The position numbers and the translations under genes are program-made. A model generated the notes under the pieces. That model was not told where the DNA came from. It made no database searches and saw nothing but the letters and a program-made list of their open reading frames with translations. Below, piece after piece: positions 8,288 through 39,877 of a stretch of DNA of 64,000 nucleotides (its first letter is position 1; the number at the start of each line of letters is the position of its first letter). The DNA comes from Peptoniphilus gorbachii (lineage in GTDB: Bacteria; Bacillota; Clostridia; Tissierellales; Peptoniphilaceae). The DNA lies in NCBI RefSeq assembly GCF_016908115.1, contig NZ_JAFBDH010000002.1, forward strand, positions 124,001 to 188,000. Direction: 5' to 3'.

Positions 8288-9097
8288 TCATAATCTTGTA
8301 ATCAAACTGTTCCTGTTTATTTTTATTTTATCTCTATTTGTTAAATACTCTTCCACATCAAACAAGTTTTTCTTATCATAATCTTCCAACAACTTGTAAT
8401 TCTTATGCTTTGTAATATCGAATTTATCAGATAGAAAAGGTCTTACTCCTCTTAACTGATAAATACACTTACCGCCATCCATTACAGTTATTTCATCTTG
8501 ACTCATAAGTTCCTTGCCAGTTTTTTGGTAATTTAGACCAAAAGATTTTTGATTGGATCTTGTTTCTGATGTGTTATATAGGTCTATGGTTTCTTTTCCT
8601 AAGGTTTCAGATAATTCTTTTACTGTTGTTTTTTCTTTTCCTCCTAAAAAGAGTGTAGAGTCGCAGTTACCAACTATTGTATCTGCATGGTCTTTATAGA
8701 TTGCTTTTAATTGAGATTGTGCTTGCAGTATTATGCTTGCCGATATTTCTCTTGAACGAATTGTTGCAATCAATTTTTCAAATTTAGGAATTAATCCTAT
8801 ATTTGCAAACTCATCAAGTAGACACCTAACATGAACTGGAAGTCTTCCACCATACACATCATCTGCCTTATCACATAGAAGATTAAATAGTTGAGAATAC
8901 ATTATTGAAACTACAAAGTTAAAGGTATCATCTGTATCTGATATTATTACGAATAAAGCAGTTTTTCTATCTCCAATTTTATCAAGCTCTAATTCATCTT
9001 CGCTCATTAGTTCTCTAAGCTCTCTTATATCAAAAGGTGCAAGTCTTGCTCCACAAGATATTAGAATTGACTTGGCAGTTTTTCCTGTAACAACTTG
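8288..9097 (-). pseudogene. virD4: virD4 fragment 4 of 4 (C-terminal part)
   Basis: This is the 3' part of the coupling-protein gene, native from 9087. It reads 'GKTAKSILISCGARLAPFDI', then 'VHVRCLLDEFANIG' (Walker B with DEFAN), 'ISASIILQAQSQL' and the usual C-terminal region. No start codon fits: the frame is open back to a TGA at 9098-9100 that belongs to the end of the inserted IME A. An internal ATG at 9007 gives a 239-residue frame but would lack the whole N-terminus. Joined to the other three fragments it gives an intact 596-residue VirD4, so the gene is interrupted rather than decayed. Confidence 0.92.
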
Positions 9098-9108
9098 TCA
9101 AGGACTTT

Positions 9109-9294
9109 TTAATCATTTTTTATCGCTTTTTGATGTTTTTCTCTCTCCATTTCTCTAAGAATTATGCGTTTTAATTTGTCTTGCATTGTTTCTGTTGCAT
9201 TTTCATTAAAGTGAACAACAACCTCATAGGTTGCTTTACCAATTTTCTTTATAGTTTTTGTTCCTGTATTCTGTTCATTTTTATTTTCGTTCAT
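9109..9294 (-). CDS. TnpW-like small transposon protein
   Basis: A 61-residue protein with the core 'IGKATYEVVVHFNENATETMQDKLKRIILRE', only part of which is quoted here as GKATYEVVVHFNENA. This resembles TnpW of Tn4451, a short protein of unknown function coded near the end of such elements. It lies 8 nt from the TTGACA at the left end of IME A, and is preceded by a strong hairpin with T-run. Related genes lie at 25351-25515 (IME B) and 37377-37559 (IME C). Confidence 0.75.
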   Translation of the reverse strand: MNENKNEQNTGTKTIKKIGKATYEVVVHFNENATETMQDKLKRIILREMEREKHQKAIKND

Positions 9295-9323
9295 ATATTT
9301 TTCCTCCTGTTTGTTTCAATAAT

Positions 9324-9360
9324 AAAGGCGATTAGAAAATTAAAAATCTAATCGCCTTTT
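9324..9360 (-). terminator. Hairpin with T-run before tnpW-like gene
   Basis: Stem AAAGGCGATTAG / CTAATCGCCTTT around an AT-rich loop. It stands 30 nt before the tnpW-like start and about 90 nt after the DnaD-like stop, so it could end the upstream transcript or act as a leader attenuator. Confidence 0.7.
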
Positions 9361-9452
9361 AAGTGTCATATTTACATTTTTATTATCTCTGGCATACTTT
9401 TATACCTTTTTAGACTTAAAGTCTTTAATAGTGGCTTTCCACCTCTTTTTAT

Positions 9453-10166
9453 CTATAGAGATTCTCCTACATCATAGTTCATTTTTTTATTTAAACCTTT
9501 CTGTATTAGTTTTTCTTTATCTTCTTCATACCATTTTAAGATTGTCGCATAGTGGTTTTGATAGGTCTTTCCACTGCTTTTCATGTATCTTGATAGTTTA
9601 TTTATCATTATGTCTGTGTGTGAATTTAGTTTTTCTTTAAGATTTTTATATTCTTCTTTGCTTAACCTTACATTTTTGAATTCTCCATAAAAAGAAACTG
9701 GGGCTGCTTGGTTTTCTTTTTCTCCTCTCCCCTTATCTATACTAACCTTATCTAATCTACCCTTATCTATACTGGGTTGACCACTTGACAACCTTTGGTT
9801 AACCAGATGACAACCAACTTTTTCTTCTGAAATGTATGCTCCATTTTCCGTTTGATAAAGCTGTTGTTTCTGCTCTATATACATTGTTGGCTTATATCTG
9901 TCTTTTCTAATATAGTTATTTATCTTCCAATGAGTAATGACGATAATTCCCTGATCAAAGACTATCACAAAGCCTTTGGCAATAAGTATTTTTAGGTCAT
10001 CTTCATTCGCTCCGATAATTTTGATGATTTTCTTAGGATTATTTACAAAACCATCATCATCTGCCCTCATTGATAAATGAAAATATAGGCATTGACTACT
10101 TAGTGGCATATCCAAAAATAAGTCGCTATCAACTATCTTTAGTGAAAACATTCTTTTATCTGCCAT
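9453..10166 (-). CDS. DnaD-like replisome organizer of IME A
   Basis: A 237-residue protein. The N-terminal ~100 residues ('MFSLKIVDSDLFLDMPLSSQ', 'YFHLSMRADDDGFVNNPKKI') form the winged-helix-like part of phage and element replication proteins. A Lys/Asp/Gly-rich linker (about 135-155) follows, and the C-terminal domain has the DnaD motif 'YQNHYATILKWY'. It probably recruits a helicase loader to the element origin. The last residues, MNYDVGESL, are nearly identical to the end of the ICE RepA-like protein (MNYDIGESL). In the ICE that stretch also contains the RBS for dnaC; here no dnaC gene follows, which suggests a deletion. The ATG follows a hairpin by 24 nt. Confidence 0.8.
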   Translation of the reverse strand: MADKRMFSLKIVDSDLFLDMPLSSQCLYFHLSMRADDDGFVNNPKKIIKIIGANEDDLKILIAKGFVIVFDQGIIVITHWKINNYIRKDRYKPTMYIEQKQQLYQTENGAYISEEKVGCHLVNQRLSSGQPSIDKGRLDKVSIDKGRGEKENQAAPVSFYGEFKNVRLSKEEYKNLKEKLNSHTDIMINKLSRYMKSSGKTYQNHYATILKWYEEDKEKLIQKGLNKKMNYDVGESL

Positions 10167-10189
10167 GCTCTCCTACCTTTCTTCAAATA

Positions 10190-10224
10190 AAAAAAGGCGA
10201 TAGTTTTCACTTCTACCGCCTTTT
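10190..10224 (-). terminator. Hairpin with T-run between the DUF1016 and DnaD-like genes
   Basis: Stem AAAAGGCG(G)TAG / CTATCGCCTTTT, 14 nt after the DUF1016 stop and 24 nt before the DnaD-like start, followed by a T-run on the minus strand. Confidence 0.65.
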
Positions 10225-10237
10225 GTAAGTTCATATT

Positions 10238-11311
10238 TTATTTTTCTGAATCTAATTCTTTTATAGACTCTTCTATTTCTTCAATAGATGGTAAGCTACT
10301 TTTATATTCCTGCTCAAGTAGTTTGCTAATTTCATACTTACTTATTCCTATTGGCTGTGAGATATTTTCAAGCGAATATTCAGCGACTACATTATCTTTA
10401 TCTCTGCAAATTAGTATTCCTATGGTTTGATTATCACTATTTGATTTCATATTCTTATTTACAGCTGTTACATAGAAATTGAGTTGACCTGCAAAATCCG
10501 GCTTAAATTTTTCTGTCTTTAATTCTACTACAACATAGGAGTGTAGTTTAACATGATAGAAAAGTAAGTCCATATAAAAATCACTTTCTCCAACCTTGAT
10601 ATGGACTTGCCTACCCATGTAAGAAAATCCTGTCCCAAGTTCCAAAAGAAAAGAAGTTATTTGATTTACTAATGCTTCTTCCAACTCTCTTTCATCATAT
10701 TTATCCCTTATTGTTAGAAAATCAAAGTTGTATGGATCTTTTATTGTTTGCTTAGCTAATTCAGATTGGACAGCCGGTAATCTATTATCAAAATTAGTAA
10801 CTGCATTCCCAACCCTTTTATATAAATCTCCATCAATCTGATGTTCCAAAACCGTCCTGCTCCATCCATTTTCAATGGTCTTATCTATATAAAACAAAGC
10901 CTCTTTGACATCTTTACACTTATACATAATCCTTTGATTATGTCCCCAAGGAATACTTTTTATTCTTCTTTCAATATCCGATAATTGGGTTACAGCTTGT
11001 AACCCAATTAGGTAATCATTATAAAAGTTATACCAATATCTTATGTGTTTTAAGTTTACGGCTGAAAATCCTCCCATGTCTGGAAATTCTTTTCTTAAAT
11101 CACTACTCAATAATTTTAGAAAACTATCACCCCAAGAATATTGTTTTTGTTTTTCAACAATTTCTTTCCCCAAGTTCCAATACAAATCAAGCAACTCATA
11201 ATTAACTTTTACTGCTGCTTTTAATTGACTACGTCTAACTTTTTCCTTTAAATCTAAAAGTAATTTTTTATATTCACTATCTCCTATAATATCTAAATCT
11301 TTTTTATCCAT
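10238..11311 (-). CDS. DUF1016 (YhcG-type) PDDEXK nuclease-fold protein
   Basis: A 357-residue protein. The N-terminal half ('YWNLGKEIVEKQKQYSWGDS', 'LKHIRYWYNFY', 'IPWGHNQRIM') is the DUF1016 N-terminal domain. The C-terminal half has the PDDEXK-type core: 'FLLELGTGFSYMGRQVHI', 'GESDFYMDLLFYH' with the catalytic Asp, and 'YVVVELKTEKFKP' with the E-x-K. Family members are common beside restriction-modification systems and on mobile DNA; their biological role is not settled. Here it has no restriction partner. The start ATG at 11311 is preferred over the GTG at 11320 because GGAG lies 8 nt before it. A good -10 (TATAAT) lies upstream at about 11450. Confidence 0.85.
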   Translation of the reverse strand: MDKKDLDIIGDSEYKKLLLDLKEKVRRSQLKAAVKVNYELLDLYWNLGKEIVEKQKQYSWGDSFLKLLSSDLRKEFPDMGGFSAVNLKHIRYWYNFYNDYLIGLQAVTQLSDIERRIKSIPWGHNQRIMYKCKDVKEALFYIDKTIENGWSRTVLEHQIDGDLYKRVGNAVTNFDNRLPAVQSELAKQTIKDPYNFDFLTIRDKYDERELEEALVNQITSFLLELGTGFSYMGRQVHIKVGESDFYMDLLFYHVKLHSYVVVELKTEKFKPDFAGQLNFYVTAVNKNMKSNSDNQTIGILICRDKDNVVAEYSLENISQPIGISKYEISKLLEQEYKSSLPSIEEIEESIKELDSEK

Positions 11312-11460
11312 TCTAATCACTCCAATCTAATTCTTTATTTTATTCTATTTCTTGCACCAATGGTGGGAGTTTTAATCTTTTTATCACAATCAGCTTACAG
11401 TAAACAAGCTCATTTTATCATTACACATTTAGTTTAATTAATGTGATTATACCAAAAATG

Positions 11461-11633
11461 TTAAATCTTTTCTATCTCTCCCTCTCTCTCTTTATCTATC
11501 TCTATATCTTTCTCTATCTCTATCTCTTGTCGGACATGGGTTGGACTAATTAAGGACAATGTCCTCTGTTTATTTTGTCTGTGAAAAATTCCTCTTTTAA
11601 TTTTATCCAATAATATCTTTTGTTTGTTGCCAT
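11461..11633 (-). pseudogene. Remnant of a phage-type replisome organizer gene
   Basis: An ATG at 11633 with AAAGGAG 5 nt before it opens 'MATNKRYYWIKLKEEFF', the well-known start of phage replisome organizer N-terminal domains. The match ends after about 20 residues and the frame stops at 11550. In another frame the sequence continues to TAA at 11461-11463 with a charged tail (EIEIEKDIEIDKEREGEIEK), which is the kind of linker these proteins carry. The purine-rich tract is therefore a coding remnant left by an internal deletion and frameshift. This also explains the gene-poor stretch 11312-11736. Confidence 0.7.
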
Positions 11634-11651
11634 ATCTGCTCCTTTCTTGAT

Positions 11652-11689
11652 TTTCGATAATCGAAATTCTTAATTTCCGATTTTCGGAA
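11652..11689. repeat. Two 15-bp palindromes of the iteron type shared with ICE repA
   Basis: TTTCGATAATCGAAA (11652-11666) and TTCCGATTTTCGGAA (11675-11689). The second is identical to a palindrome inside the ICE repA-like gene at 42206-42220. They lie upstream of the replisome-organizer remnant, in a gene-free gap, and may be binding sites of a replication initiator. Confidence 0.6.
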
Positions 11690-11736
11690 GTCTTGTTATT
11701 ATAGTTATTTAAGGGTGTAACTTTTCGTTACTCCCT

Positions 11737-12264
11737 TTAGATTTCTCTGGTCATATCTTTTTTGTTTGGTTTTACTTTTTCTTTTACTTTCCTTTTGACT
11801 TTCTCTTTTGTCTTATCCTTGTTCTTGGATAGGTCTTTGTATTTCTTTATTTGTTTTAGGATACTTTCTTTTTCTTTTTTATTTTCTTTGGCTATGACTT
11901 GCTTAAAGGCATATTCCATTACTTTTATGTCTTTGGCTTGGAAAAATACTTCATAGTTTTTGCTTTCTTTGTTTTTCATTACTGAGAAACTTACTCCAAG
12001 TTTGTTTAGTTCTTTTTTTAAGTCTTTGAGGTCGCTTTGATCTAGGCTTATATTTTCTAGTTGTCCTCTTTTGTAGAGGTCTTTCATTTTCATTTCATCG
12101 CCCATAAGACTTTTTAAGTTTCCGTTTGCTTTTTCTAAAGTATCATTCATCTTTTTTCTTATTTCTTTGTCTAAGTTGATTGATTCTTTTGCTGCCTTTA
12201 TTGTGTATGTTATTATGGTTTGTGCTGCTTGACCTACTTCTTTGCTTATTTCTTCGTTTATCAT
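11737..12264 (-). CDS. DUF3801/PcfB-like protein of IME A
   Basis: A 175-residue protein of the DUF3801 family, to which PcfB of pCF10 belongs. The core 'KRGQLENISLDQSDLKDLKK', then 'LGVSFSVMKNKESKNYEVFFQAKDIKVMEYAFKQV' (quoted in part), closely parallels the ICE copy at 40601-41086. The tail is very rich in Lys. PcfB is needed for docking of the relaxosome to the VirD4-type coupling protein, so this IME copy may adapt its relaxase to the ICE channel. It follows a small 57-residue gene and a strong hairpin. Confidence 0.85.
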   Translation of the reverse strand: MINEEISKEVGQAAQTIITYTIKAAKESINLDKEIRKKMNDTLEKANGNLKSLMGDEMKMKDLYKRGQLENISLDQSDLKDLKKELNKLGVSFSVMKNKESKNYEVFFQAKDIKVMEYAFKQVIAKENKKEKESILKQIKKYKDLSKNKDKTKEKVKRKVKEKVKPNKKDMTREI

Positions 12265-12288
12265 GTTTTATCTCCTTTGTTTGAATTA

Positions 12289-12331
12289 AAAAAAGGGAAG
12301 TATAGGTTTTAATTTTTCTATACTTCCCTTT
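12289..12331 (-). terminator. Hairpin with T-run before the DUF3801 gene
   Basis: Stem AAGGGAAGTATAG / CTATACTTCCCTT with a T-run on the minus strand, 25 nt before the DUF3801 start. Confidence 0.7.
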
Positions 12332-12447
12332 GCTTGTTTTTATTTTATTGTTCTTGGTGGTGGAATGCTTTATTTTGATGTTTTTATAGATTACTTAGGT
12401 CTTTGTACCTTTTGTTGTTTTTCTGCTCTTATTTTGCTTTTCCACCT

Positions 12448-12621
12448 TTAGTAGTTTATGTGTGTTCTTTTGTCTGATAGATAGTTTTTCATGTTGGAAT
12501 ATATAATCTGTATTTCTTCATTGTTCATTGCTTTTATTTCTTCTGTGCTTTTATATATTTTATATGTTCCATCTTCGTCTGCTTTTATGAGTTCATATAT
12601 TAGCTCTTGCCTTTTATTCAT
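12448..12621 (-). CDS. Small charged protein, unknown function
   Basis: A 57-codon frame starting ATG at 12621 ('MNKRQELIYELIKADEDGTY...') and ending TAA at 12448. It is Lys/Glu-rich and probably helical. It lies 73 nt after the relaxase stop and about 120 nt before the hairpin that precedes the DUF3801 gene. I do not recognise a family; position suggests a mobilization accessory protein. Confidence 0.5.
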   Translation of the reverse strand: MNKRQELIYELIKADEDGTYKIYKSTEEIKAMNNEEIQIIYSNMKNYLSDKRTHINY

Positions 12622-12694
12622 CTCTATTACCTCCTAGATCTGCCTTTATTTTCTTGGTCATATTATAGCTTGGATAAGATATTTTTACAAGGTC

Positions 12695-14323
12695 TTATCT
12701 TTCTTGATAATAGTCTTTGACTAATTGTCTTTTTTTATTAAACTTATCACTGTCTTTTTTATACTCTTTAATCTTTTCTATGATACTTTCTTTCTCTCCC
12801 CTCTTAATTGCCTTGTCAATTTCTATTGATAGGTCGATACCATATTCTTCATTTACTACTTCTACTGCATATTTAATATGATTTATTTCCTTGTACCTTT
12901 CCCTTATCTTTTCTGACTCTGTATTTAATTTACTGATTTCATCTTCTAAGTTTTTAATTTCTCCTAACCATTCTTTTTCTCTTAAATTTTTCTTTCCACT
13001 GATTTTTTCAATTAAGTTTCTTGCCCTTATATATTGGTCTATTTCCTTTTGATTATTCTTGTAGAAGCTTTCTTTGAGTATTTTCTTGCTTTCATAGTCT
13101 TGGTAGGTTGCTTTTGTTTTTCTTACAGTCTTTGCATAGGCTAAGCACTTATTAAGGTCTTCTATCTTTTGACTGTTTTCTTTTATGGTCTTATATATTT
13201 CAGAGTTTTTGCTTCTTAGGGTGTTTATATGTCCTTGTAGGTCTGATATGGTTTTTATTTTATTTTCTCTTAGATAATTTATTCCACTTGCATATCTTTT
13301 TAGATCATAGATTGCTTTGTTTCTTTTCCCATAAAATGATAATTCATCTCTATTATTTTCTTGCATTTCTTGATAGAAGCTTAAATATTCATAGAGGTTA
13401 AAGAGTCCTGATTCATTTTCGATTTGCTTTTTACTTTGGTCTTTATATTCCTTGTATGATTCTTTTAGCTTATCTTTGAAGCCTGCTAGCCAAGATGTTA
13501 TTTTCTTTATTTCATTGCCTATGTTTTTTAATAGTTCATTCTGTTTTTTTATTTCACGATTTATATCTCCTTTTTCTGTCCTTATTCCTTTTCTTTCCAT
13601 TGCACTAGCACTTGCTCCTAGATGTATTGTTGGTATTTGTTTTATGCCTTGTCTTTTAAAACTCCTATGGTCTACTCTTTTTTCTATTTTGTTTTTTGCC
13701 AGATATTCATTGCAAAGGTCTGAAAAATTTTCTCTCCATTTTTCTACATTGCCTTTATCGTTCCAGGTTGTTAGTTCTACTTTCCTTGTCTTTGGTTTTC
13801 CATTTTTGCTTAAAATCTTTTCTCCTTTTTCATCTAGGATATATTCTTTTTTACTTTTTTGCCCCCATGTTCCATCTTCGTTTATTGGTCTTACTATGGT
13901 CATTATATGAGCATGAATGTTTTGATTTCCCTCTCTACTTTCATCATGAATTGCTAGGTCTACTATCATTCCCTCTTTTACAAAATTGTTTTGAACATAT
14001 TCTTCTATCATCTTTTTATTTTCTTCTATGCTTAACTCTTTTGGTAAAGATATGATAAAGTTTCTTGCAAGTTGGGCATTAGAGTTTTTCTCAAATAGTT
14101 CTACCGAGTTCCACAAGGTTTTTCGGTCTTTATATTCTTTTGGTGCGTGATCTGGCAAAAATATTTCTTTGCTAATTACTCCTTGTTTTTTGGTGTAGTC
14201 ATGGGTTACTCCGTCCCATTCATTTTTTATTTTTTCTCCACTTATATATGCTGCACTTGCTACTGCACTTTTTCCTTTTCCTCTTGATATTATGTTTACT
14301 GAAAAATGAAAACTGTCTGCCAT
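12695..14323 (-). CDS. MobA/MobL-type (MOBQ) relaxase of IME A
   Basis: A 542-residue relaxase that would nick oriT and lead the strand into the mating channel. The MobA/MobL domain spans about residues 1-225: 'FSVNIISRGKGKSAVASAAY' (7-26), and the metal-binding HxH at 137-139 in 'NQNIHAHIMTIVRP'. The rest is a long coiled coil. ATG at 14323 is chosen over the GTG at 14332 because GGAAG lies 8 nt before it. The oriT (14590-14640) lies directly upstream. The protein is clearly different from the two near-identical relaxases of IMEs B and C. Confidence 0.93.
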   Translation of the reverse strand: MADSFHFSVNIISRGKGKSAVASAAYISGEKIKNEWDGVTHDYTKKQGVISKEIFLPDHAPKEYKDRKTLWNSVELFEKNSNAQLARNFIISLPKELSIEENKKMIEEYVQNNFVKEGMIVDLAIHDESREGNQNIHAHIMTIVRPINEDGTWGQKSKKEYILDEKGEKILSKNGKPKTRKVELTTWNDKGNVEKWRENFSDLCNEYLAKNKIEKRVDHRSFKRQGIKQIPTIHLGASASAMERKGIRTEKGDINREIKKQNELLKNIGNEIKKITSWLAGFKDKLKESYKEYKDQSKKQIENESGLFNLYEYLSFYQEMQENNRDELSFYGKRNKAIYDLKRYASGINYLRENKIKTISDLQGHINTLRSKNSEIYKTIKENSQKIEDLNKCLAYAKTVRKTKATYQDYESKKILKESFYKNNQKEIDQYIRARNLIEKISGKKNLREKEWLGEIKNLEDEISKLNTESEKIRERYKEINHIKYAVEVVNEEYGIDLSIEIDKAIKRGEKESIIEKIKEYKKDSDKFNKKRQLVKDYYQER

Positions 14324-14419
14324 TTTTATCACTTCCTTTCTTTTTTTGTTGTTTTAGGTGGAGGCTTAATAGATTTTTTATAGCCACTTTGTGAATGAGC
14401 GTTTTGAAATGATAGAATT

Positions 14420-14470
14420 AAAAAAAGCCGACTACTGAATTAATTTTTGTTGTTTCAGTATGTCGGCTTA
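14420..14470 (-). terminator. Hairpin with T-run before relaxase A
   Basis: Stem AGCCGACATACTGAA / TTCAGTAGTCGGCT followed by seven T on the minus strand, about 100 nt before the relaxase start. The gene-free gap 14324-14668 contains this hairpin and oriT. Confidence 0.7.
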
Positions 14471-14589
14471 ATTGTTTTGTTCATTTCAAATTTTAAAAGT
14501 CAAGGGCGAGCCTCAGCGAGTTTATTTACCCTTGACTTTTAAAAAGCGAATGGTTATTGGTCGCTTCAGGGTTTTGGCTCCGCAGGACG

Positions 14590-14640
14590 CAAGCACCCTT
14601 TAGGGTGTATAATTGCGCCCTTAGAAAATCTAAGGGAGAT
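14590..14640. other. oriT of IME A (MOBQ type)
   Basis: An inverted repeat CACCCTT/TAGGGTG (14594-14607) is followed by TAATTGCGCCCTT (14610-14622) and then AAGGG...(CTAAGGG) at 14630. MOBQ plasmids such as RSF1010 have a hairpin followed by TAAGTGCGCCCT with the nick in the middle. The same arrangement occurs beside the relaxases of IMEs B and C. The nick site is inferred, not shown. Confidence 0.75.
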
Positions 14641-14668
14641 TTGGTTATTTACAGATTCATTTATTTTT

Positions 14669-14959
14669 TTAATTTCCTCTCATTATTTTTAGTGTTTCTT
14701 TAAATTCTTTTGTCTTTGTTGCTTCTTCTAGTAGGATTTTTATTTCTTCATCTGTTAGTTCTTCTGCATTTTCTATAAGGCTTTCTAAAATTGCTCCTCT
14801 TGTTATTAGCCTATGAGTTCTTTCTTTTCTTCTTTTTATTATGTCTTGTTTTAATATCTTTTGTTCTTGATTTTTTAGTTGCCTTAATCTTTCTTCTGTA
14901 TTGTCTATTTTATCTTTTATTTCTTTTGACTCTCGTCTTATTTGTTCTAATTTTTTCAT
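14669..14959 (-). CDS. DUF3847 (MobC-like) mobilization accessory protein of IME A
   Basis: A 96-residue, highly charged, helical protein ('RRESKEIKDKIDNTEERLRQ...', then 'RTHRLITRGAILESLIEN'). The second half is the conserved DUF3847 segment shared with the B and C copies (there 'YEKGGVFESIFTES'). Such proteins precede oriT and the relaxase gene in many IMEs and probably help load or position the relaxase. The stop is about 30 nt from the oriT. Confidence 0.8.
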   Translation of the reverse strand: MKKLEQIRRESKEIKDKIDNTEERLRQLKNQEQKILKQDIIKRRKERTHRLITRGAILESLIENAEELTDEEIKILLEEATKTKEFKETLKIMRGN

Positions 14960-15013: not shown

Positions 15014-15025
15014 AAAGTTTCATTA

Positions 15026-33109: not shown

Positions 33110-33364
33110 CTAAGAGGTTAATCCTTTAGGATCTGTTACTACATAGGAAGAGTGCATTTGCATTAGGTTTGGCTTTACATAAAATCTTGTTTTACCTGAT
33201 CCAGAACCTCCTATTACTAAAACATTTTTATTTCTAGCGTATTTAGGATTTTTAGGTCTTGAGTTCATTGTAAGTCTTTCGGTATTAGTTATTAGTACAT
33301 TATTTTCAAACTTAGGATCAATATATGGAGCAATATCCTTGCTTTCCCCCCAGGAAGCGTTTTG
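33110..33364 (-). pseudogene. virD4: virD4 fragment 2 of 4 (Walker A part)
   Basis: Native sequence from 33348 ('GESKDIAPYIDPKFENN') to the core at 33123 ('HSSYVVTDPKG'), about 76 residues, including Walker A GGSGSGKT ('NVLVIGGSGSGKTRFYVKPN'). It is open upstream to a TGA at 33365-33367 in IME C and stops at 33110 after three foreign residues (LTS) in IME B. This 250-bp piece is all that separates the two elements. Confidence 0.93.
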
Positions 33365-33423
33365 TCAAGTACCTTTTTATATTTATGGACACGTTTTTTA
33401 ATATTTTTCATTTTTAGGCAAAG

Positions 33424-33459
33424 AAAAAACAGTAAATCTAATTTTTGATTTACTGTTTC
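33424..33459 (-). terminator. Leader hairpin at the left end of IME C
   Basis: AACAGTAAATC / GATTTACTGTT followed by TTTTTTC on the minus strand, the same hairpin as in IME B. The sequence after it (TTTGCCTAAAAATG) also matches IME B but the tnpW-like gene that follows there is absent. Only a short frame of unclear meaning ('MKNIKKRVHKYKKVLDK') runs into the virD4 fragment. Confidence 0.6.
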
Positions 33460-33511
33460 TCAAATTGCTACATTCCATTAAATAAACATGAAGTTTCTTC
33501 AATATTTTATT

Positions 33512-33862
33512 TTAATTATGACTCTTAATGAATTCTTCCACATTCTCTTGCCTTATATCAATAAAATCATCCTTGTTTTCATTATATACTAATCTGATAT
33601 ACATTGGGGTTTCCTTTTTATCTCCCCCTCCTATAATGAGATGATATTCATTATTTATTTCATATGCCAAAATATATAATCCTGATCCGACCTCTTTGCC
33701 CTCATATTTTTCAAAATCATCCCACGATAAATCATTGCCTTTCTGAGAAAGCTCAATAACTTTTTCAATAGATAGTATATTCTCGTCCTCCTTTTTAGAA
33801 TAACATCCTGCTACTGAAAGGATAATTGAAAATATCAAAATCATTAAAACAATTTTTTTCAT
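33512..33862 (-). CDS. Small putative lipoprotein
   Basis: A 116-residue protein with a lipoprotein signal peptide: 'MKKIVLMILIFSIILSVAGC', with lipobox SVAGC and the modified Cys at residue 20. The mature part is acidic, about 95 residues, with no recognised domain. It would be held on the outer face of the membrane. ATG at 33862 has GGAAG 8 nt upstream. It is the last gene before the left end of IME C. Confidence 0.7.
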   Translation of the reverse strand: MKKIVLMILIFSIILSVAGCYSKKEDENILSIEKVIELSQKGNDLSWDDFEKYEGKEVGSGLYILAYEINNEYHLIIGGGDKKETPMYIRLVYNENKDDFIDIRQENVEEFIKSHN

Positions 33863-33907
33863 TATCTTCACTTCCATAATTTGAAAATTTGCACATTTAC
33901 TCTTCTA

Positions 33908-34372
33908 CTATTCCTTGTTTCCAAAATCCGAAATATCCATTACTGGGTATCCATATTTTTCTAGCATTTTTGCAAATACACCTTTACCTTCTATTAGTTG
34001 ATTTTGAAATTTACCATCATAAATTGTTTTCACTCCACAACTTGGACTTCTAGACTGTAAAATAATCAGTTTGGGATTTTCTGAGATAACCCTCTCAAGT
34101 GCTAGTTTTGCTCCTTTAATAAATTCTTCATGAACACACTCGCCATCCTTATTTATCACAACTCCATTTGCAATTTCAGCAGGCAAACGCGGAGTAGAAA
34201 GCCCACCTAAAATCTCAGGACATATGGAAACATATTTTTTATCCTTTAACCAATCGATTAAATTTTGATTGGCATTATTTTTACCATTATATTTGCAATT
34301 AATACCAATTAAACATGCACTAACTACAATTTTATCTCCTGCATTAATTTCACTTATCAATTGTGTATACAT
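33908..34372 (-). CDS. DUF523-family protein
   Basis: A 154-residue protein of the DUF523 family: 'VVSACLIGINCKYNGKNNAN', 'SICPEILGGLSTPRLPAEI' and 'ILQSRSPSCGVKTIYDG' hold the conserved cysteines that suggest metal or cluster binding. The biochemical role of the family is not established. It is encoded after relaxase C and is probably cargo. Confidence 0.85.
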   Translation of the reverse strand: MYTQLISEINAGDKIVVSACLIGINCKYNGKNNANQNLIDWLKDKKYVSICPEILGGLSTPRLPAEIANGVVINKDGECVHEEFIKGAKLALERVISENPKLIILQSRSPSCGVKTIYDGKFQNQLIEGKGVFAKMLEKYGYPVMDISDFGNKE

Positions 34373-34444
34373 CCACTCTCCCTACAATATAACAATTCCT
34401 ATTACTATTACTGTTTTCCAATATTGTATCATATCCCCCCAATT

Positions 34445-35905
34445 TTACAAGTCTAACTCATTTTTCTTTACCTGTGTTAGTTCTCTGTTTTCTTGTTGTA
34501 ATTTCTCTATACAGTTCTTAACCTTTTCTGCCTGTTCAACTTCTTCTCGTATCTCTATTATTTGATTGTATAGGTTCTTCTTCTCTTTCTTCAAAGTGGC
34601 AAGTTCTGATTTCCATTTACTGATGGCTAAGGTTTTACTTTCTCCTAAATACTCTTTCAGATGTTTCTTGGCACTTTCAAATAAAATGAGTTCTGCCGTA
34701 TGCTCGTTATAAAAATCTTCCTGTTTGCTTTTCTTTAATTTTGTATAGACTTTATAAGTGTCTTTATACTTCAAATATTTTTCTGATTGGTCTATGAGTT
34801 GTGTTTTTTCATCAATCTTCTTTTCGGTATCTTTTAAAGCTCTTGTAGTCTTATAATTCTTATCTCGTAAATCGGTAATGCTCTCTTTTAATTGATTGAT
34901 ACTTGTAATGTTTTTCTCTTTGAGTAGCTGATAACTTTCAATATATTTTTCCAAGTCTGCATTATTCTTATCTGCGTTTTTACGGATAAGATTTTCGAAG
35001 ATTGACAACAGATTTTCTTTAGGTGGGAGGGTGGACTTTGTATTTTCATTTTCTGCTTTTTCTTCTTTTCCTATCCCTCTTATCCAATTTAACAAAGCTT
35101 TTATTCTTCTTGAGATTTCTCTTAAAATTGCATTTTGATGTTTGATTTCTCTGTTGATATTTCCTCTGTCTGTAGCTATTCCTTTCTTCTCCATTTGGGT
35201 TGCTGACACTCCTAAATGAATGGTCGGTATTTGTTCTATGCCTTGTCTTTGATAAGAACGATGATCCACTTTGTCATGTATGCTGTTTTCTTCAAGATAT
35301 TTGTTTGTAATGTCTGCCCATGCTTTTCGCCACTCTTCCGCTTTGTCTTGCTCGTTCCAGTCTGTTGTATTTATTTTTCTTGTTTTGTAATTACCATTTT
35401 TGAGTTTTACCTTTTCTCCGTTTTCATCAAGGATATATTCTTTTTTTGATTTTGCTCCCCATGTTTTATCTTCGTCTAATGGTCGCATGGTTAGTAGGAT
35501 ATGACAATGTGGGTTTCCGTCATTTTTATCATGTAGGGCAATATCTGCACACATACCGACTTTTACAAAATTTTCTTTTACATATTCTCGTACAAGATTT
35601 ATTTGTTTTTCTCGGTCTAATTCTTTGGGTAAGGCTACTTCAATTTCTCTTGCAAGCTGTGAGTTTTTATTCTTTTCTACTTTCTCGACACTGTTCCATA
35701 ATGTTTCTCTATCTGAAAATTCCTGTGGTGCATTTTGCGGTAAAAGAATTTCTGTATGAGCTATTCCGCCTTTTCTTGTAAAGTCATGGACGATACCGTC
35801 ATATTCGTTTTTTATCTTTTCGCCACTTCGATAGGCGGAAGCTGCTACTACACTTTTGCCTTTGCCTCTTGAAATAATCTTTATACAAAGATGATATATC
35901 GCCAT
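34445..35905 (-). CDS. MobA/MobL-type (MOBQ) relaxase of IME C
   Basis: A 486-residue relaxase nearly identical to that of IME B. 'IKIISRGKGKSVVAASAYRS' and the HxH in 'GNPHCHILLTMRPL' (133-135) mark the catalytic domain; the rest is coiled coil. The ATG at 35905 (RBS AAAGGAGG, 8 nt) is chosen; a longer frame to 36013 only reads through the terminator and oriT-side region. It would act on the oriT at 36100-36150. Confidence 0.93.
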   Translation of the reverse strand: MAIYHLCIKIISRGKGKSVVAASAYRSGEKIKNEYDGIVHDFTRKGGIAHTEILLPQNAPQEFSDRETLWNSVEKVEKNKNSQLAREIEVALPKELDREKQINLVREYVKENFVKVGMCADIALHDKNDGNPHCHILLTMRPLDEDKTWGAKSKKEYILDENGEKVKLKNGNYKTRKINTTDWNEQDKAEEWRKAWADITNKYLEENSIHDKVDHRSYQRQGIEQIPTIHLGVSATQMEKKGIATDRGNINREIKHQNAILREISRRIKALLNWIRGIGKEEKAENENTKSTLPPKENLLSIFENLIRKNADKNNADLEKYIESYQLLKEKNITSINQLKESITDLRDKNYKTTRALKDTEKKIDEKTQLIDQSEKYLKYKDTYKVYTKLKKSKQEDFYNEHTAELILFESAKKHLKEYLGESKTLAISKWKSELATLKKEKKNLYNQIIEIREEVEQAEKVKNCIEKLQQENRELTQVKKNELDL

Positions 35906-35964
35906 AAAAGAAAACCTCCTTTCCATTTTTCGGTATGGTTGTGGTGGCGATAGATAAGACTTCC

Positions 35965-35996
35965 TAAAAAAATCGGATGGCTTTTTATCCGATTTC
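35965..35996 (-). terminator. Hairpin with T-run before relaxase C
   Basis: AAATCGGATA / CATCCGATTT with TTTTTTT on the minus strand, the counterpart of the hairpin at 28253-28284. Confidence 0.7.
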
Positions 35997-36099
35997 TTCC
36001 CCGAAGTACACAAGGGGTAGGAAATTTATTTCCGTAGGGGAATGTAGTTCCCCTGTATCAGCGTTAGCTGATATGCTTATCTAGCAAGAGCCTTCGGAG

Positions 36100-36150
36100 A
36101 ACGCACACACCTGTTAAGGTGTATATGTGCGCCCTTGTAAACAAGGGACT
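36100..36150. other. oriT of IME C (MOBQ type)
   Basis: Inverted repeat CACCTGTTAAGGTG (36108-36121), then TATGTGCGCCCTT (36124-36136) and the stem CCCTTGT/ACAAGGG. The neighbourhood (36003-36150) is almost the same as in IME B; the nic-side differs at two positions. Confidence 0.8.
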
Positions 36151-36469
36151 ATTCCTCTATGTCCGTTTCTTCCTCTTGGGTTTCGGTGTTTTGATTTTCC
36201 GTTTCTTCTCTGCTTTCAATGATTTTTTTAATTTTGATATTGGCTTCTTCTTTACGAATTAGAGATGTGATTAGCTGATAAAATTCATCTTTAGTTAGAT
36301 TTTTACTTTCTGTAAAGATACTTTCAAAGACTGCTCCTTTTTCATATATCCTTTTATCTCTCTTTTTTCTTTCTTCCTGTTTCTGTTGACTGATGAGCTT
36401 TTTTCTTTTGTTTTGTAATTGCTTGATTTCTTCATCTGCCATTAAGATTTTTTCTTCTATGTTTTTCAT
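36149..36469 (-). CDS. DUF3847 (MobC-like) mobilization accessory protein of IME C
   Basis: A 106-residue charged helical protein starting 'MKNIEEKILMADEEIKQLQN' and with 'YEKGAVFESIFTESKNLTKD'. It is the counterpart of the IME B gene but the middle ('ITSLIRKEEANIKIKK') differs. ATG at 36469 has GAGAGG 9 nt upstream. It probably acts with the relaxase at oriT. Confidence 0.8.
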   Translation of the reverse strand: MKNIEEKILMADEEIKQLQNKRKKLISQQKQEERKKRDKRIYEKGAVFESIFTESKNLTKDEFYQLITSLIRKEEANIKIKKIIESREETENQNTETQEEETDIEE

Positions 36470-36503
36470 TTTTTCGTTTCCTCTCTTTCTAATTTTGAGC
36501 AAA

Positions 36504-36560
36504 GAAAAAACAGTAAACCTTTTTTGATTTACTGTTTCTGTGTTAGTTTTTATTAAGTTA
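36504..36560 (-). promoter_or_regulatory. Conserved leader hairpin block, copy 3 (IME C, before DUF3847 gene)
   Basis: Minus strand: TTAATAAAAACTAACACAG, then AACAGTAAATC / GGTTTACTGTT and T-run, then the RBS. It separates the methyltransferase gene from the DUF3847 gene. Confidence 0.65.
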
Positions 36561-36564
36561 TTAG

Positions 36565-37284
36565 TTAGTTGTTTTTCTTAAAAATTACAACTCCGAAAAA
36601 TGGACAAATAGCTACAGTTTTTACTAATCCCATATTTGCTTTTTCTGACCAATGTTCCAACTCTTTCAAAGAGTAAAACCAATTATCATTGGGACTGTTT
36701 TCTCTCATATCTTCAACTGTGTAAACTTCATTTTCTTTAAGGTATGGTTCTATATAATTTTTATATATTTCTTCAGGGGTGGTTTCTTTTAATAAAAATC
36801 TATATACCTTATTAAATAATTCTGTATCATTTTCTGCGTCAAATAAAAGCATGGTATCGCACAAATAAAAATAACCATCCGTTGTAAGTATCTTTGAAAT
36901 ATTTTCTAACGACTTTTCTTTATAATCCCATGGCACTTGATGGAATGCTAACATACTAATAACTTTATTAACGCTTTGATTACAATTTAATTCTTCAAAA
37001 CTTCCTTGAATGTATTTCACATTTCCATTACTACGATTTATAGCTTCCTGTAAATTATCTGCATTTGGCTCAATACCTATAACTTCATCTGAAAAATTAC
37101 TACAAACCTTTGAAAAATTTCCCCAGCCACAACCTATATCCATTACCTTATCGCTTTTTTTCAATTCAGCTAATTTAAGCATAAGATTAACTAATTCATC
37201 TTTACTTTCATAGGTCTGTCTTCCATCAGGACTAATAAGTTTGTTGATGTATTTATCTAATAATGCTGTCCAATTTTCAGCCAT
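36565..37284 (-). CDS. Class I SAM-dependent methyltransferase
   Basis: A 239-residue cytoplasmic protein with a Rossmann-type methyltransferase domain: motif I 'VMDIGCGWGNFSK' (about 47-59), acidic loop 'VIGIEPNADNLQEA' and 'KVISMLAFHQVPWDYK'. The substrate is not evident; small-molecule or resistance-type methylation is possible but not supported by any specific motif. It is cargo of IME C, between the tnpW-like gene and the mobilization block. Confidence 0.85.
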   Translation of the reverse strand: MAENWTALLDKYINKLISPDGRQTYESKDELVNLMLKLAELKKSDKVMDIGCGWGNFSKVCSNFSDEVIGIEPNADNLQEAINRSNGNVKYIQGSFEELNCNQSVNKVISMLAFHQVPWDYKEKSLENISKILTTDGYFYLCDTMLLFDAENDTELFNKVYRFLLKETTPEEIYKNYIEPYLKENEVYTVEDMRENSPNDNWFYSLKELEHWSEKANMGLVKTVAICPFFGVVIFKKNN

Positions 37285-37376
37285 AACTTACCTCCCATTT
37301 ATATTGTGTAAATTACTAAATATTATAGCATTTTTTAGGCATTTTTTCTACTGCCAGATTTCTCACTTACTCGCTA

Positions 37377-37559
37377 CTATTTATCCTTTGAGTGTATTAC
37401 CTTAAACAGTTTATCTTGAAAAGTTTCTTTGCTCTTTTTATCAAAATATATCTCTGTTACAAAGGTCTTTCCATTTATCTTTTTTGTTAGAATACCATCA
37501 GGCTTTTGGGGTTGTTCTGCCTGTATTTCTTTAATATCTGTTTTCTCATTTTCTGCCAT
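37377..37559 (-). CDS. TnpW-like small transposon protein of IME C
   Basis: A 60-residue protein whose second half, 'KKINGKTFVTEIYFDKKSKE' then 'TFQDKLFKVIH', matches the pattern of the TnpW-like proteins of IMEs A and B. Unlike those it lies beside the recombinase gene rather than at the opposite end. It follows a hairpin with T-run. Confidence 0.65.
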   Translation of the reverse strand: MAENEKTDIKEIQAEQPQKPDGILTKKINGKTFVTEIYFDKKSKETFQDKLFKVIHSKDK

Positions 37560-37582
37560 TTAGTTTCTCCTTTCGACTTGCA

Positions 37583-37620
37583 CAAAAAAAGATTTCCTGT
37601 GATTAGGAAACCTCTTTTTT
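37583..37620 (-). terminator. Hairpin with T-run after recombinase C
   Basis: AAAAAGAGGTTTCCT / AGGAAATCTTTTTTT on the minus strand, 20 nt after the recombinase stop and 24 nt before the tnpW-like start. Confidence 0.65.
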
Positions 37621-37639
37621 TATTGGTTGATATTTAGTT

Positions 37640-39478
37640 TTAGGTTGTTGCTTGTAGTTTCTTTTTTGCTCTGTATTCTCTTGCTTTTAATTTTTCATAC
37701 TCTCGGCACTTTTCAAGATTTTTGGCTCGGTATTCTTTGTAATATGCCCTACGATATGCTCTGGTTTTTTCTTTCTTTGCTTCTTCTATTTCTTCCCTCA
37801 TCTGTAGCATTTCTTCTTTTGTCGGCTCTATCTGTTTTGTAAGTTCATTTTCAAATTTTCCAATATAGTTAAAATAAACCTCTATTCGCTGAACTACATA
37901 TTTTGCTCTTTTTACATCTCTTTCATGCACTACGATTTTACTTATAAACTCATTGATAATGGTAGGGGTAAGTTCTTCAAAGTTGGAATAGCTCTCTGCA
38001 AGTCTGATAAATTTCTTTGCTCTTTGGCTTGCATTTTCGCATTCGGATAAGCGTTCTTTGATTTCTTCTTTTTCTGCTTTTAAGGTGTAGTATTCTTCTG
38101 CATACTTTCTTGATAACTGTTCATAGCGTTCTGTATCCATATTTCCAAGTGCATTATCTTCATAGAGCTTATTCATCACTCTTTCTATCTGCTCCATTCG
38201 ATCTGTGATTTGTGGCATACTCTTTTGATTTTTCTTTACTTCTTCGGTCTGCTCTTTATACAGACTTTCTTTTACAAGTTTCTCAAATTCTGCTTTGTTT
38301 TCCAAAGAATACTGTGCTATCTTTCGCAAGACTTCTGCGATATTTTCCATAACCTCATCAACATCAATGCGGTGTGGGGAGTTGCATTTGGGGTGCTTTG
38401 CTTTCCCTTTGGCATATTCACTGCAATAGGTTACATGCTGTACTCTTCCATTTTTGTGTATGGTGCGAATGTGCATTTTTGTTCCGCAATCTTTACAGTA
38501 CATCAAGCCTGAAAGTGCGTGAATTTCTCCATCTCCGTTTGGTCTTTTTACAGGTGCATTTTTTAACATACGCTCTACATTTTCAAAGGTAGTTCTATCT
38601 ATTATTGGCTCATGCACATTTTCTGTTATTTGCCATTTGCTTTTATCTACATAATGGTTTCTCTTATCTCTGTAATGCTTTTCGGTCTTAAAATTGACTA
38701 CATCACCACAATACTCTTGTCTTTTCAGTATGCGTGTTAGAGTTGCTTTGTTCCAGTTATATCTGTTTTCTTCATTTAGTGGTTTGTTTTTTGCTGTTCC
38801 TCTGTTTTGCTGTTTCATATAAAAGGTTGGAGTTAGTATTTCTTTTTCTTTCAGGTAAACAGCTATCTGATTTCTGTTTTTCCCCTCCATAAATAGCCTA
38901 AAAATGAGTTTTACAACTTCGGCAGCTTCTTTATCGACGATCCAATAATCTTTGTTCTCAGGGTCTTTTATATAGCCGTATGGGGCTTCTGTTGCGACAG
39001 GCTTTCCGTCTGCTCCTTTGGTCTTAATTCCTGTCTTTACTTTCTTGCTGATGTCTCTTGCATACCACTCTGACATGATGTTGATAAAGGGAGCAAATTC
39101 CAATGTATTTTGGTCTATGCTATCTATACCGTTGTTGATGGCGATAAAGCGTACATTGTTTCTTCGAAATATCTCCATAGCGTTTCCGACTTGAAGATAA
39201 TCTCTTCCCCATCTTGTCATATCTTTCATGATGACAATACCGATTTTGCCTTGTTCTACATCGTTTATCATCTGTGTATAGGCTGAACGGTCAAAGAACC
39301 TACCGCTTTCGTCATCATCGATATAGTGGCGAATGTTTATCAGCTTTTTATCTCTTGCATACCTTTCTAAAAAGGCTTTTTGATTTACAATACTATTACT
39401 CTCGCCACCGTCTCTATCTTCATCACCAACTGAAAGGCGGGAGTATAGTGCTGTAATTTTATTGTGATATTCTATCAT
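37640..39478 (-). CDS. Large serine recombinase of IME C
   Basis: A 612-residue recombinase. Catalytic region 'ITALYSRLSVGDEDRDGGES' (Ser in YSRLS), 'MKDMTRWGRDYLQVG', recombinase domain, zinc ribbon 'CKDCGTKMHIR' ... 'CSEYAKGKAKHPKC', coiled coil and a basic tail. ATG at 39478 has AAAGGAGG 7 nt upstream and lies 60 nt inside the core. It is more distant from the other two than they are from each other ('ERLSRDDE' in A and B). Confidence 0.93.
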   Translation of the reverse strand: MIEYHNKITALYSRLSVGDEDRDGGESNSIVNQKAFLERYARDKKLINIRHYIDDDESGRFFDRSAYTQMINDVEQGKIGIVIMKDMTRWGRDYLQVGNAMEIFRRNNVRFIAINNGIDSIDQNTLEFAPFINIMSEWYARDISKKVKTGIKTKGADGKPVATEAPYGYIKDPENKDYWIVDKEAAEVVKLIFRLFMEGKNRNQIAVYLKEKEILTPTFYMKQQNRGTAKNKPLNEENRYNWNKATLTRILKRQEYCGDVVNFKTEKHYRDKRNHYVDKSKWQITENVHEPIIDRTTFENVERMLKNAPVKRPNGDGEIHALSGLMYCKDCGTKMHIRTIHKNGRVQHVTYCSEYAKGKAKHPKCNSPHRIDVDEVMENIAEVLRKIAQYSLENKAEFEKLVKESLYKEQTEEVKKNQKSMPQITDRMEQIERVMNKLYEDNALGNMDTERYEQLSRKYAEEYYTLKAEKEEIKERLSECENASQRAKKFIRLAESYSNFEELTPTIINEFISKIVVHERDVKRAKYVVQRIEVYFNYIGKFENELTKQIEPTKEEMLQMREEIEEAKKEKTRAYRRAYYKEYRAKNLEKCREYEKLKAREYRAKKKLQATT

Positions 39479-39529
39479 GGCATTATCCTCCTTTTCTCGT
39501 GTCTATATATCACTCCTGTTCAGTTAATA

Positions 39530-39877
39530 TTATGCAACCCATCTTGCAGATCCATATTCCTTACCTTGCCTATATTTCTTTTTGTTTTTACCTTTGCTAT
39601 AAACAATTAGCTTAACAAGACAAGCAACTGAAATACCTACTAACAAGTCCCTTGGATTAAGGCTTGGTATATAAGATAAAGTTCCTATATCAGAAATTCC
39701 CACCATTATTTTATCAATAATATCTCCTCCTACATAAGAATTGATGTGCTTAGAAAAGATATTTCCAATGTAGAAGAATGATAGATAGGGAATGTTTGAT
39801 AATATAAATTTCTTTGGGTTGTCTATTTTAATTAGGTTTTTAATATCAGAAAGAATGGCTTCTAATATCTTATTCAT
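39530..39877 (-). pseudogene. virD4: virD4 fragment 1 of 4 (N-terminal part)
   Basis: The native start of the coupling protein: ATG at 39877 (GAAGG 8 nt upstream, overlapping the end of the BRO gene), two membrane segments (about residues 25-45 and 75-100) and 'YRQGKEYGSARW' before the core at 39541-39538. It ends at TAA 39530 after two foreign residues (VA). A GTG at 39892 is a less likely start. The N-terminal membrane anchor is thus separated by about 6 kb from the Walker A piece. Confidence 0.92.

What the first reader, a model, noticed from the sequence alone, without database searches (positions are those of the whole stretch)
8288..39877. One coupling-protein gene split by three mobilizable elements, exactly repairable
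The four virD4 pieces (39877-39538, 33348-33123, 25301-24872, 9082-8288) add to 1,791 nt and read as one frame of 596 residues with Walker A and DEFAN in place. The joins read ARW|GES, DPKG|TLV and KLAAG|KTA, which are native VirD4 order. Three different serine recombinases thus each chose a site in the same gene, all in the same direction. The ICE cannot make its coupling protein until all three leave, yet the IMEs themselves need a coupling protein to move. IMEs in ICE genes are known in streptococci; three in one gene is a striking case.
Basis: partly seen in the sequence, partly recalled or inferred. Interest (0 to 1): 0.92.

Follow-up and report, generated by a model that had tools for sequence, protein, structure and literature searches.

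The report
Three mobile elements stacked in virD4
A bacterial gene needed to export DNA to other cells is cut at three exact places by three hitch-hiking DNA elements, each with its own recombining enzyme, and the same three places are used again and again in related bacteria.

Summary
Four virD4 pieces at the stated coordinates align end to end, gaplessly, to uninterrupted natural homologues; a plasmid-borne copy in Aerococcus tenax is an annotated 1,791-nt CDS. Between them lie three mobilizable elements (6,189, 7,821 and 15,789 bp), each with a large serine recombinase and a MobQ relaxase on the virD4 strand. The genome shows no second VirD4 and no further PF07508 recombinase. The arrangement recurs: of 130 virD4 places found in 130 genomes of the family, 70 are intact, 49 interrupted at sites A, B and/or C, 11 unclear. 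At 62 of 62 breaks examined at these sites the nearest recombinase fits the site and strand. Three triples in the family hold up on inspection, this one included. New detail: all three right ends carry TTGACA; across the two ends, 17 nt on, stands a good -10 for A and C, a weak one for B, suggesting a recombinase promoter completed only in the circle, as in Tn4451. Two IMEs in one traG are published; I found no report of three. Excision coupled to conjugation is inferred. New variant of a known kind.

The parts
39538..39877 (-). virD4 piece 1 (N-terminal part, to site A)
   Evidence: gapless alignment to intact homologues
33349..39537 (-). IME A, 6,189 bp, in site A
   Evidence: junctions read; compared
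37640..39478 (-). large serine recombinase A (612 aa), next gene after the 5' virD4 piece
   Evidence: class A at 13 of 13 site-A breaks
34445..36013 (-). MobQ relaxase of IME A
   Evidence: NF041496
33123..33348 (-). virD4 piece 2 (sites A to B)
25302..33122 (-). IME B, 7,821 bp, in site B
   Evidence: junctions read; compared
31415..33067 (-). large serine recombinase B (550 aa)
   Evidence: class B at 19 of 19 site-B breaks
26734..28194 (-). MobQ relaxase of IME B
   Evidence: NF041496
25351..25515 (-). TnpW-like 54-aa ORF at the right end of IME B
   Evidence: PF14202
24872..25301 (-). virD4 piece 3 (sites B to C)
   Evidence: NF045973 66-207
9083..24871 (-). IME C, 15,789 bp, in site C
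   Evidence: junctions read; compared
22949..24775 (-). large serine recombinase C (608 aa)
   Evidence: class C at 30 of 30 site-C breaks
12695..14332 (-). MobQ relaxase of IME C
   Evidence: NF041496
15898..22111 (-). IME C cargo: two ABC exporter half-genes, double ECF-type ATPase, CbiQ-like T component, MptD-like S component
9109..9294 (-). TnpW-like 61-aa ORF at the right end of IME C
   Evidence: PF14202
8288..9082 (-). virD4 piece 4 (C-terminal part)
   Evidence: NF045973 209-442, 315 bits
33363..33368 (-). TTGACA in the right end of IME A, 14 nt from the junction
39529..39534 (-). CATAAT in the left end of IME A; summed spacer 17
25317..25322 (-). TTGACA in the right end of IME B, 15 nt from the junction
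33115..33120 (-). TAACCT in the left end of IME B at summed spacer 17 (weak, 3 of 6)
9096..9101 (-). TTGACA in the right end of IME C, 13 nt from the junction
24862..24867 (-). TAGAAT in the left end of IME C; summed spacer 17
33420..33475 (-). terminator-like hairpin near the right end of IME A
   Evidence: -16.2 kcal/mol, z -4.1
25540..25600 (-). terminator-like hairpin near the right end of IME B
   Evidence: -14.8 kcal/mol, z -5.5
9316..9365 (-). terminator-like hairpin near the right end of IME C
   Evidence: -18.4 kcal/mol, z -6.7
39870..42676 (-). host-element genes upstream of virD4: RepA_N, DnaC-like ATPase, DUF3801/PcfB, BRO/KilAC
   Evidence: same order in L227 and L228
1579..8226 (-). 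host-element genes downstream: DUF1706, PIN_8, TrbL/VirB6-like, PrgI, VirB4-like ATPase
   Evidence: bases 1-8287 are 97.1% identical to L227

Best explanation
The virD4 gene of a CD1115-type conjugative element holds three separate attachment sites, each the address of one large-serine-recombinase subfamily, and all three are occupied here by mobilizable elements. Shown: exact, co-directional insertion; the pairing of recombinase class and site; and the recombinase gene placed as the next gene after the 5' virD4 piece. Suggested by sequence: the recombinase promoter is split, with -35 at the right end and -10 at the left end, so that it exists only in the excised circle and drives re-integration, as described for Tn4451 (clear for A and C, doubtful for B). 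Inferred: while integrated, each recombinase is transcribed mainly by read-through from the host transfer operon, so that switching on conjugation also switches on excision, restores virD4 and lends the elements the machine they need. Because each element ends in a terminator-like hairpin, the stack should come out in order, A then B then C.
For: Gapless contiguity of the pieces in natural homologues. Class equals site and same strand at 62 of 62 breaks examined, 54 from the 42 region sets and 8 from 7 of 10 named loci outside the family that I picked from 80. Recombinase match begins 60-61 (A), 44-128 (B) and 67-106 nt (C) after the break by tblastn coordinates, leaving little room for a promoter; small uncapped scans find no promoter-like pair ahead of recombinase C and, for A, only one that straddles the start codon. 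TTGACA in 55 of 55 right ends, and in 21 of 24 in the partly overlapping named set. -10-like hexamer at spacer 17 of 5/6 for A and C. A diverged C recombinase (59%, L210) has TTGACT and, by my count on its two ends, TATGCT at the same spacing. Hairpins with z -4.1 to -6.7 near all three right ends. Many interrupted genes look maintained: in G000 dN 0.0066 against dS 0.11; an interrupted copy (G096, sites A+C) shows no difference over 581 codons from an intact copy in another species. Excision on ICE induction was already proposed by Coluzzi et al. 2017 (PMC5357655, passages).
Against: No excision, transcript or transfer data. The B -10 is weak (3 of 6), and a promoter-like pair (TTAACC-16-AATAAT, 9 of 12) lies in the left end of B ahead of its recombinase, so B may have its own promoter. 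Promoter-like hits in the window are no more frequent than in shuffles. In-frame stops in 6 of 39 interrupted region sets (G146, and perhaps G009 and G034, by alignment running into the insert) and hybrid elements in G068 and G108 show that some stacks decay. The pooled non-synonymous to synonymous ratio is higher in interrupted sets (0.39) than in intact pairs (0.25). Pairs of occupied sites occur more often than independence predicts, which also fits stranded elements collecting insertions. Low dN/dS may date from before the insertions. In C. difficile R20291 the related Tn6103, with three such elements, excised but its transfer was not detected, and only one of its three elements was seen to excise (PMC3158075, passages).
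Confidence: 0.6

Rival explanations
1. Dead stack: the insertions have stranded the host element for good. The elements use virD4 as a safe harbour that costs the cell nothing and move, if at all, by another conjugative element.
For: Excess co-occupancy of sites (A-C 12 against 5.7 expected, B-C 10 against 4.3); stops in 6 of 39 sets and a higher pooled N/S ratio than in intact pairs; hybrid elements; no transfer detected for Tn6103 in R20291 (PMC3158075).
Against: Exact junctions with intact cores; low dN/dS in many interrupted copies; interrupted and uninterrupted copies with identical codons in different species; no second VirD4 found in this genome to act as helper, though TcpA-type proteins were not searched for.
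Confidence: 0.22
2. Independent, unregulated excision: each recombinase works at a low constant level from its own weak promoter, so empty sites arise by chance in rare cells without any link to the transfer operon.
For: A weak promoter-like pair ahead of recombinase B. The review states that the Tn4451 recombinase excises and integrates without a directionality factor (PMC5704250, passages).
Against: No such pair ahead of recombinase C, and for A only one straddling the start codon; same strand and next after the 5' piece at 62 of 62 breaks; the TTGACA sits at the far end.
Confidence: 0.15
3. Assembly artefact: a misassembly placed unrelated elements inside virD4.
For: The genome is a draft of 18 contigs.
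Against: Each of the three junction pairs recurs, nearly letter for letter, in many other assemblies; the window lies well inside a 258 kb contig.
Confidence: 0.01

Closest known systems
IME_Sco1050_traG_site1 and site2 in a Tn5252-superfamily ICE of Streptococcus constellatus (PMC5704250 Table 1; PMC5357655 passages)
   Same: IMEs with serine integrases in internal sites of the VirD4 coupling gene of an ICE; two sites in one gene; excision on ICE induction proposed. In PMC5357655, 12 of 16 serine-integrase IMEs carry MobQ relaxases.
   Different: Two sites, not three. Their sequences were not among those I had, so which of sites A, B and C they match is untested. No split promoter is described in the passages I read; the word promoter does not occur in the held main text of PMC5357655.
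Tn6104 and Tn6105 in Tn6103 of Clostridioides difficile R20291 (PMC3158075); Tn6105 plus a cfrE insert in Tn7806 (PMC11983580)
   Same: Mobilizable transposons with large serine recombinases; two in one ORF (1743); PMC5704250 lists Tn6104 as integrated in traG; Tn6104 shown to excise and leave the target with a 2-bp repeat.
   Different: Two per gene in R20291, with the third element in another ORF; drug-resistance cargo in Tn7806; cargo differs.
Tn4451/Tn4453 family (TnpX)
   Same: Large serine recombinase, TnpW-like small ORF (Pfam name), and a promoter formed by circularisation (title of Lyras and Rood 2000, seen in the reference list of PMC13023037; paper not read).
   Different: Tn4451 has numerous GA targets and a MobV relaxase (PMC5704250); here the sites are fixed with a GG core and the relaxases are MobQ.
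Gene-interrupting elements excised on demand (comK prophage of Listeria, skin element; names recalled)
   Same: A host gene restored by precise excision; PMC5357655 draws this analogy with prophages.
   Different: Here the interrupted gene belongs to another mobile element, on which the inserts depend for transfer.

Membership tests
Integrative and mobilizable element (IME) | Own site-specific recombinase | tested here: met
   four-domain large serine recombinase in each insert
Integrative and mobilizable element (IME) | Own relaxase, no mating-pore genes | tested here: met
   MobQ relaxases over the NF041496 cut-off in all three; no T4SS gene among the minus-strand ORFs of the inserts that were scanned
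Integrative and mobilizable element (IME) | Defined ends with a short shared core | tested here: met
   GG-containing core at both ends of each insert
Integrative and mobilizable element (IME) | Excises and is mobilized in trans | not testable with these tools
   needs wet-lab or read data
traG/virD4-targeting serine-integrase IMEs | Internal, specific site in a VirD4 gene of an ICE | tested here: met
   62 of 62 breaks; 42 region sets plus 10 of 80 named loci, chosen partly by recombinase or virD4 similarity
traG/virD4-targeting serine-integrase IMEs | Same sites as IME_Sco1050_traG_site1/2 | not tested
   reference sequences not obtained; a Streptococcus anginosus locus (L204) has site A occupied by a 98% recombinase A
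Tn4451-type circle promoter | -35 and -10 brought together at the circle joint at about 17 nt | tested here: inconclusive
   met by sequence for A and C, weak for B; activity not measured
ICE (host element) | Mating-pore genes, coupling protein, relaxase and integrase in one delimited element | tested here: inconclusive
   VirB4-like, VirB6-like, PrgI and CD1108 present; coupling gene interrupted; own relaxase and integrase not assigned; near-identical backbones lie on plasmid records

The most novel reading that the evidence does not exclude
VirD4 of these conjugative elements is a three-position dock whose occupants form an ordered, transcription-driven excision relay: the transfer operon reads recombinase A, whose exit lets transcription reach B, then C. 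The coupling protein is made only in cells where all three have left, so the hitch-hikers act together as an AND gate on conjugation.
Probability: 0.22. Interest if true: 0.82.

Novelty: new variant of a known kind. Interest (0 to 1): 0.56.

Why it matters
It turns an isolated curiosity into a pattern. One transfer gene is a shared docking platform for three recombinase subfamilies, seen in Peptoniphilus-like genomes, Anaerococcus, streptococci, Veillonella and Lachnospiraceae, and 49 of 130 virD4 places in the family are interrupted. That bears on why annotated elements of this type often look broken and on how mobilizable elements and their hosts avoid destroying each other. It makes a 2017 proposal (excision when conjugation is switched on) testable with a concrete mechanism, and it supplies three recombinase and site pairs that appear not to overlap, with natural empty controls.

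Tried and rejected
Idea that the recombinases chose the most conserved DNA of virD4: rejected; 40-nt windows at sites A, B and C rank at the 35th, 26th and 76th percentile of conservation among 58 distinct intact genes.

Counting triples by frame length alone: one search gave 5, but inspection kept 3 (G000, G077, G152). G034 shows no recombinase-A element upstream, and G108 carries a hybrid with a broken B-type recombinase and an A-type right end. In G077 and G152 the 3' piece lies on another contig and its assignment is inferred. A further case outside the family set, Suipraeoptans L210, has sites A (recombinase cut by the locus edge), B and C occupied. The triple-excess figure used 5 and is too strong; I do not rely on it.

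Rows dropped: the G012 stretch (L051), with overlapping virD4 fragments on both strands, was left out of the 42 sets onwards; 3 of the 42 sets had too few shared codons; only 10 of the 80 named loci went into. Breaks elsewhere in virD4 than within four residues of the three sites were not counted (the L210 site-C end, 14 residues further in the alignment, was admitted by hand), and two of the 62 recombinases are fragments (G010_x, G056).

Consensus promoter and terminator scans: promoter hits at or below the shuffle level and lists capped, so the left ends were rescanned alone. The scans listed none of the three right-end hairpins folded. Enterococcus faecium plasmid hits (one opened): a virD4 stretch among insertion sequences with an aminoglycoside-resistance gene nearby; described only, not pursued. 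Structure prediction and viral-contig scans were not used. The ten paper searches, not all aimed at this point, showed no report of three IMEs in one coupling gene; I read passages and one whole section (PMC5704250 section 13), no paper whole, and no supplements.
Full report
WHAT IS THERE. The window lies at 124001-188000 of a 258 kb contig in a 1.87 Mb genome of 18 contigs. The four virD4 pieces are real. Pieces 2-4 hit the NCBIfam model for VirD4-like CD1115 proteins. Searched one by one against intact relatives at 93-96% nucleotide identity (L013, L014, L017) they are contiguous without gap. A copy on a plasmid record of Aerococcus tenax is an annotated CDS of 1,791 nt, in the same gene order (RepA, ATPase, PcfB, BRO, VirD4, DfsB, PIN), and takes the four pieces end to end.

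THE INSERTS. IME A (33349-39537), B (25302-33122) and C (9083-24871) each begin, after the 5' virD4 piece, with a large serine recombinase of the four-domain plan and carry a MobQ relaxase over its curated cut-off. B and C end in a TnpW-like ORF. The insert genes I identified lie on the virD4 strand; only minus-strand ORFs were scanned. Cargo, much of it by matches below curated cut-offs: a methyltransferase and a TudS-like protein in A; PadR, HAAS, an alpha/beta hydrolase and a CPBP protein in B; an ECF-type importer, two ABC exporter halves, a sigma factor and a YhcG nuclease in C. No drug-resistance model shown passed its cut-off (lists are capped at 25 families per protein). The three PF07508 recombinases here are the only ones found in the genome. 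No second VirD4 was found: PF02534 matches only these pieces, NF045973 these and a weak cross-hit to VirB4.

THE PATTERN ELSEWHERE. Two searches with pieces 3 and 2 of virD4 over the 130 held genomes of the family gave 130 piece-3 places in 77 genomes. From frame lengths and spacing 70 are intact, 49 interrupted (A 5, B 3, C 22, AC 7, BC 5, ABC 5, BC with an unclear A side 1, AB with an unclear C side 1) and 11 are contig edges or fragments. Of the 5 ABC calls, 3 survive inspection (G000, G077, G152), the last two with the 3' piece on another contig; G034 and G108 do not. In 42 fetched region sets plus 10 of the 80 named loci (my pick, outside the family), 62 breaks lie at the three sites; a recombinase was found at 62, its class equalled the site in 62 and its strand that of virD4 in 62 (A 13, B 19, C 30; identities to the window protein 89-100, 89-100 and 57-100%). 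Regions were picked partly through recombinase similarity, so the figure shows the pairing, not how often other recombinases use virD4. Named carriers include Streptococcus anginosus (A), S. massiliensis (B, with an A-type right end before it), S. pseudoporcinus and Veillonella seminalis (C), Lachnospiraceae bacterium KA00044 (C, with an A-type right end before it) and Suipraeoptans intestinalis (A, B, C; a Lachnospiraceae member from recall). Relaxases and cargo are swapped while recombinase and ends stay: between this triple and G077's, IME B shares 26% of its length, at the two ends. The triples were therefore put together from different elements, or have since exchanged their middles.

ENDS AND PROMOTER. 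Right ends carry TTGACA in 19 of 19 A, 16 of 16 B and 20 of 20 C cases. In the overlapping named set it is 11 of 13 A (L199 and L218 differ by one base), 10 of 10 B and 0 of 1 C (L210, TTGACT). In the window TTGACA stands 14, 15 and 13 nt before the junction, and the hexamer that would lie 17 nt downstream across the circle joint is CATAAT (5 of 6 to TATAAT), TAACCT (3 of 6) and TAGAAT (5 of 6). From the frequency of TTGACA on that strand, a copy within 20 positions of all three ends has a chance probability of about 7e-7, taking the ends as independent, which related elements need not be. Distances were computed on the two ends separately. Uncapped scans of the integrated left ends find no promoter-like pair for C, one straddling the recombinase start codon for A, and a weak one ahead of the gene for B. 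A promoter formed on circularisation is known for Tn4451 by the title of Lyras and Rood 2000, which I saw only in a reference list. Terminator-like hairpins lie near all three right ends (z -4.1 for A, -5.5 for B, -6.7 for C).

IS THE GENE ALIVE? Against the nearest intact gene, the window's pieces show 36 synonymous and 9 non-synonymous differences over 574 codons (dN 0.0066, dS 0.11). Over 39 interrupted sets the non-synonymous to synonymous difference ratio is 0.39, against 0.25 for 43 intact pairs; the former includes outliers I did not drop (G064 and G068_C14, poorly matched or hybrid; G146, an alignment artefact). Stops occur in 6 of 39 (G008, G009, G010_x, G034, G145_C5, G146), of which G146 and perhaps G009 and G034 come from alignment running into the insert. 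G096 (A and C occupied) shows no difference over 581 codons from an intact gene of Anaerococcus sp. Marseille-P3625. So many interrupted copies look recently or reversibly interrupted, and some are decaying.

CO-OCCUPANCY. Among 117 fully classified loci, pairs exceed independence: A-B 5 against 1.9 (P 0.02), B-C 10 against 4.3 (P 0.0009), A-C 12 against 5.7 (P 0.0008). This ignores relatedness and uses the 5 uncorrected triples. It says the sites do not exclude each other; it does not tell shared induction from stranded hosts.

MECHANISM. Shown: exact docking, class-site pairing, orientation and position of the recombinases. Suggested by sequence: a recombinase promoter completed only in the circle for A and C, doubtful for B. 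Inferred: read-through from the transfer operon as the integrated-state source of recombinase, hence excision coupled to conjugation and an ordered exit. Excision on ICE induction was proposed by Coluzzi et al. 2017 (PMC5357655, passages) and repeated in PMC5704250 (section 13 and table passages); the split promoter and ordered relay are what I add to that idea for these elements.

WHAT IS KNOWN. Two IMEs in two sites of traG in Streptococcus constellatus, and Tn6104 in traG of C. difficile, are listed in PMC5704250. Two elements in ORF 1743 of Tn6103, excision of Tn6104 and no detected transfer of Tn6103 are in PMC3158075 (passages). An IME in Tn1549_traG of S. suis is in PMC7168690 (passages). 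A doubly interrupted virD4 in C. difficile Tn7806 is in PMC11983580 (passages). The ten searches listed in Tried and rejected showed no gene with three. The finding is therefore a new variant of a known kind: three sites in one gene, triple stacking, class-site pairing over many genomes, and the split-promoter ends.

Noticed in passing
window 42949-44127: IS110-family RNA-guided transposase (NF033542) between the host element's RepA gene and lysS.
   Followed up: no
window 44789-46711: Lysine-tRNA ligase fused to a C-terminal tRNA-binding domain like that of methionine-tRNA ligase.
   Followed up: no
window 62261-62353: SAM riboswitch (RF00162) on the minus strand, upstream of the ORF at 60968-62140.
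   Followed up: no
window 10238-11320: YhcG-type PDDEXK nuclease with DUF1016 domain as cargo of IME C; possible defence gene.
   Followed up: no
L128-L129 (G068 C14) and L132/L230 (G108): Hybrid elements with a B-type recombinase end and an A-type right end; in G068 a stretch of virD4 (residues 116-195) occurs twice, which looks like recombination between stacked elements.
   Followed up: partly
L048 4229-11872: A 2,547-aa ORF with a SNF2-like helicase stretch in the host element; an SNF2-type gene is a published IME target and this one is open.
   Followed up: no
L048 472-2969: Two-component system resembling VanR/VanS, both below curated cut-offs, next to a weak match to a lantibiotic-immunity permease.
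   Followed up: no
plasmid record AP031233.1 (L229): Enterococcus faecium plasmid records listed carry a 98.8% identical stretch of virD4 piece 4 (residues 1-250); in the one record opened it sits among insertion sequences.
   Followed up: no
L044 8817-8957, L182 15810-15950, L220 13852-13992, L228 21133-21502: Stray virD4 fragments, inside a C-site insert (L044 and L182 are the same place) or downstream of virD4, possibly left by earlier recombination.
   Followed up: no
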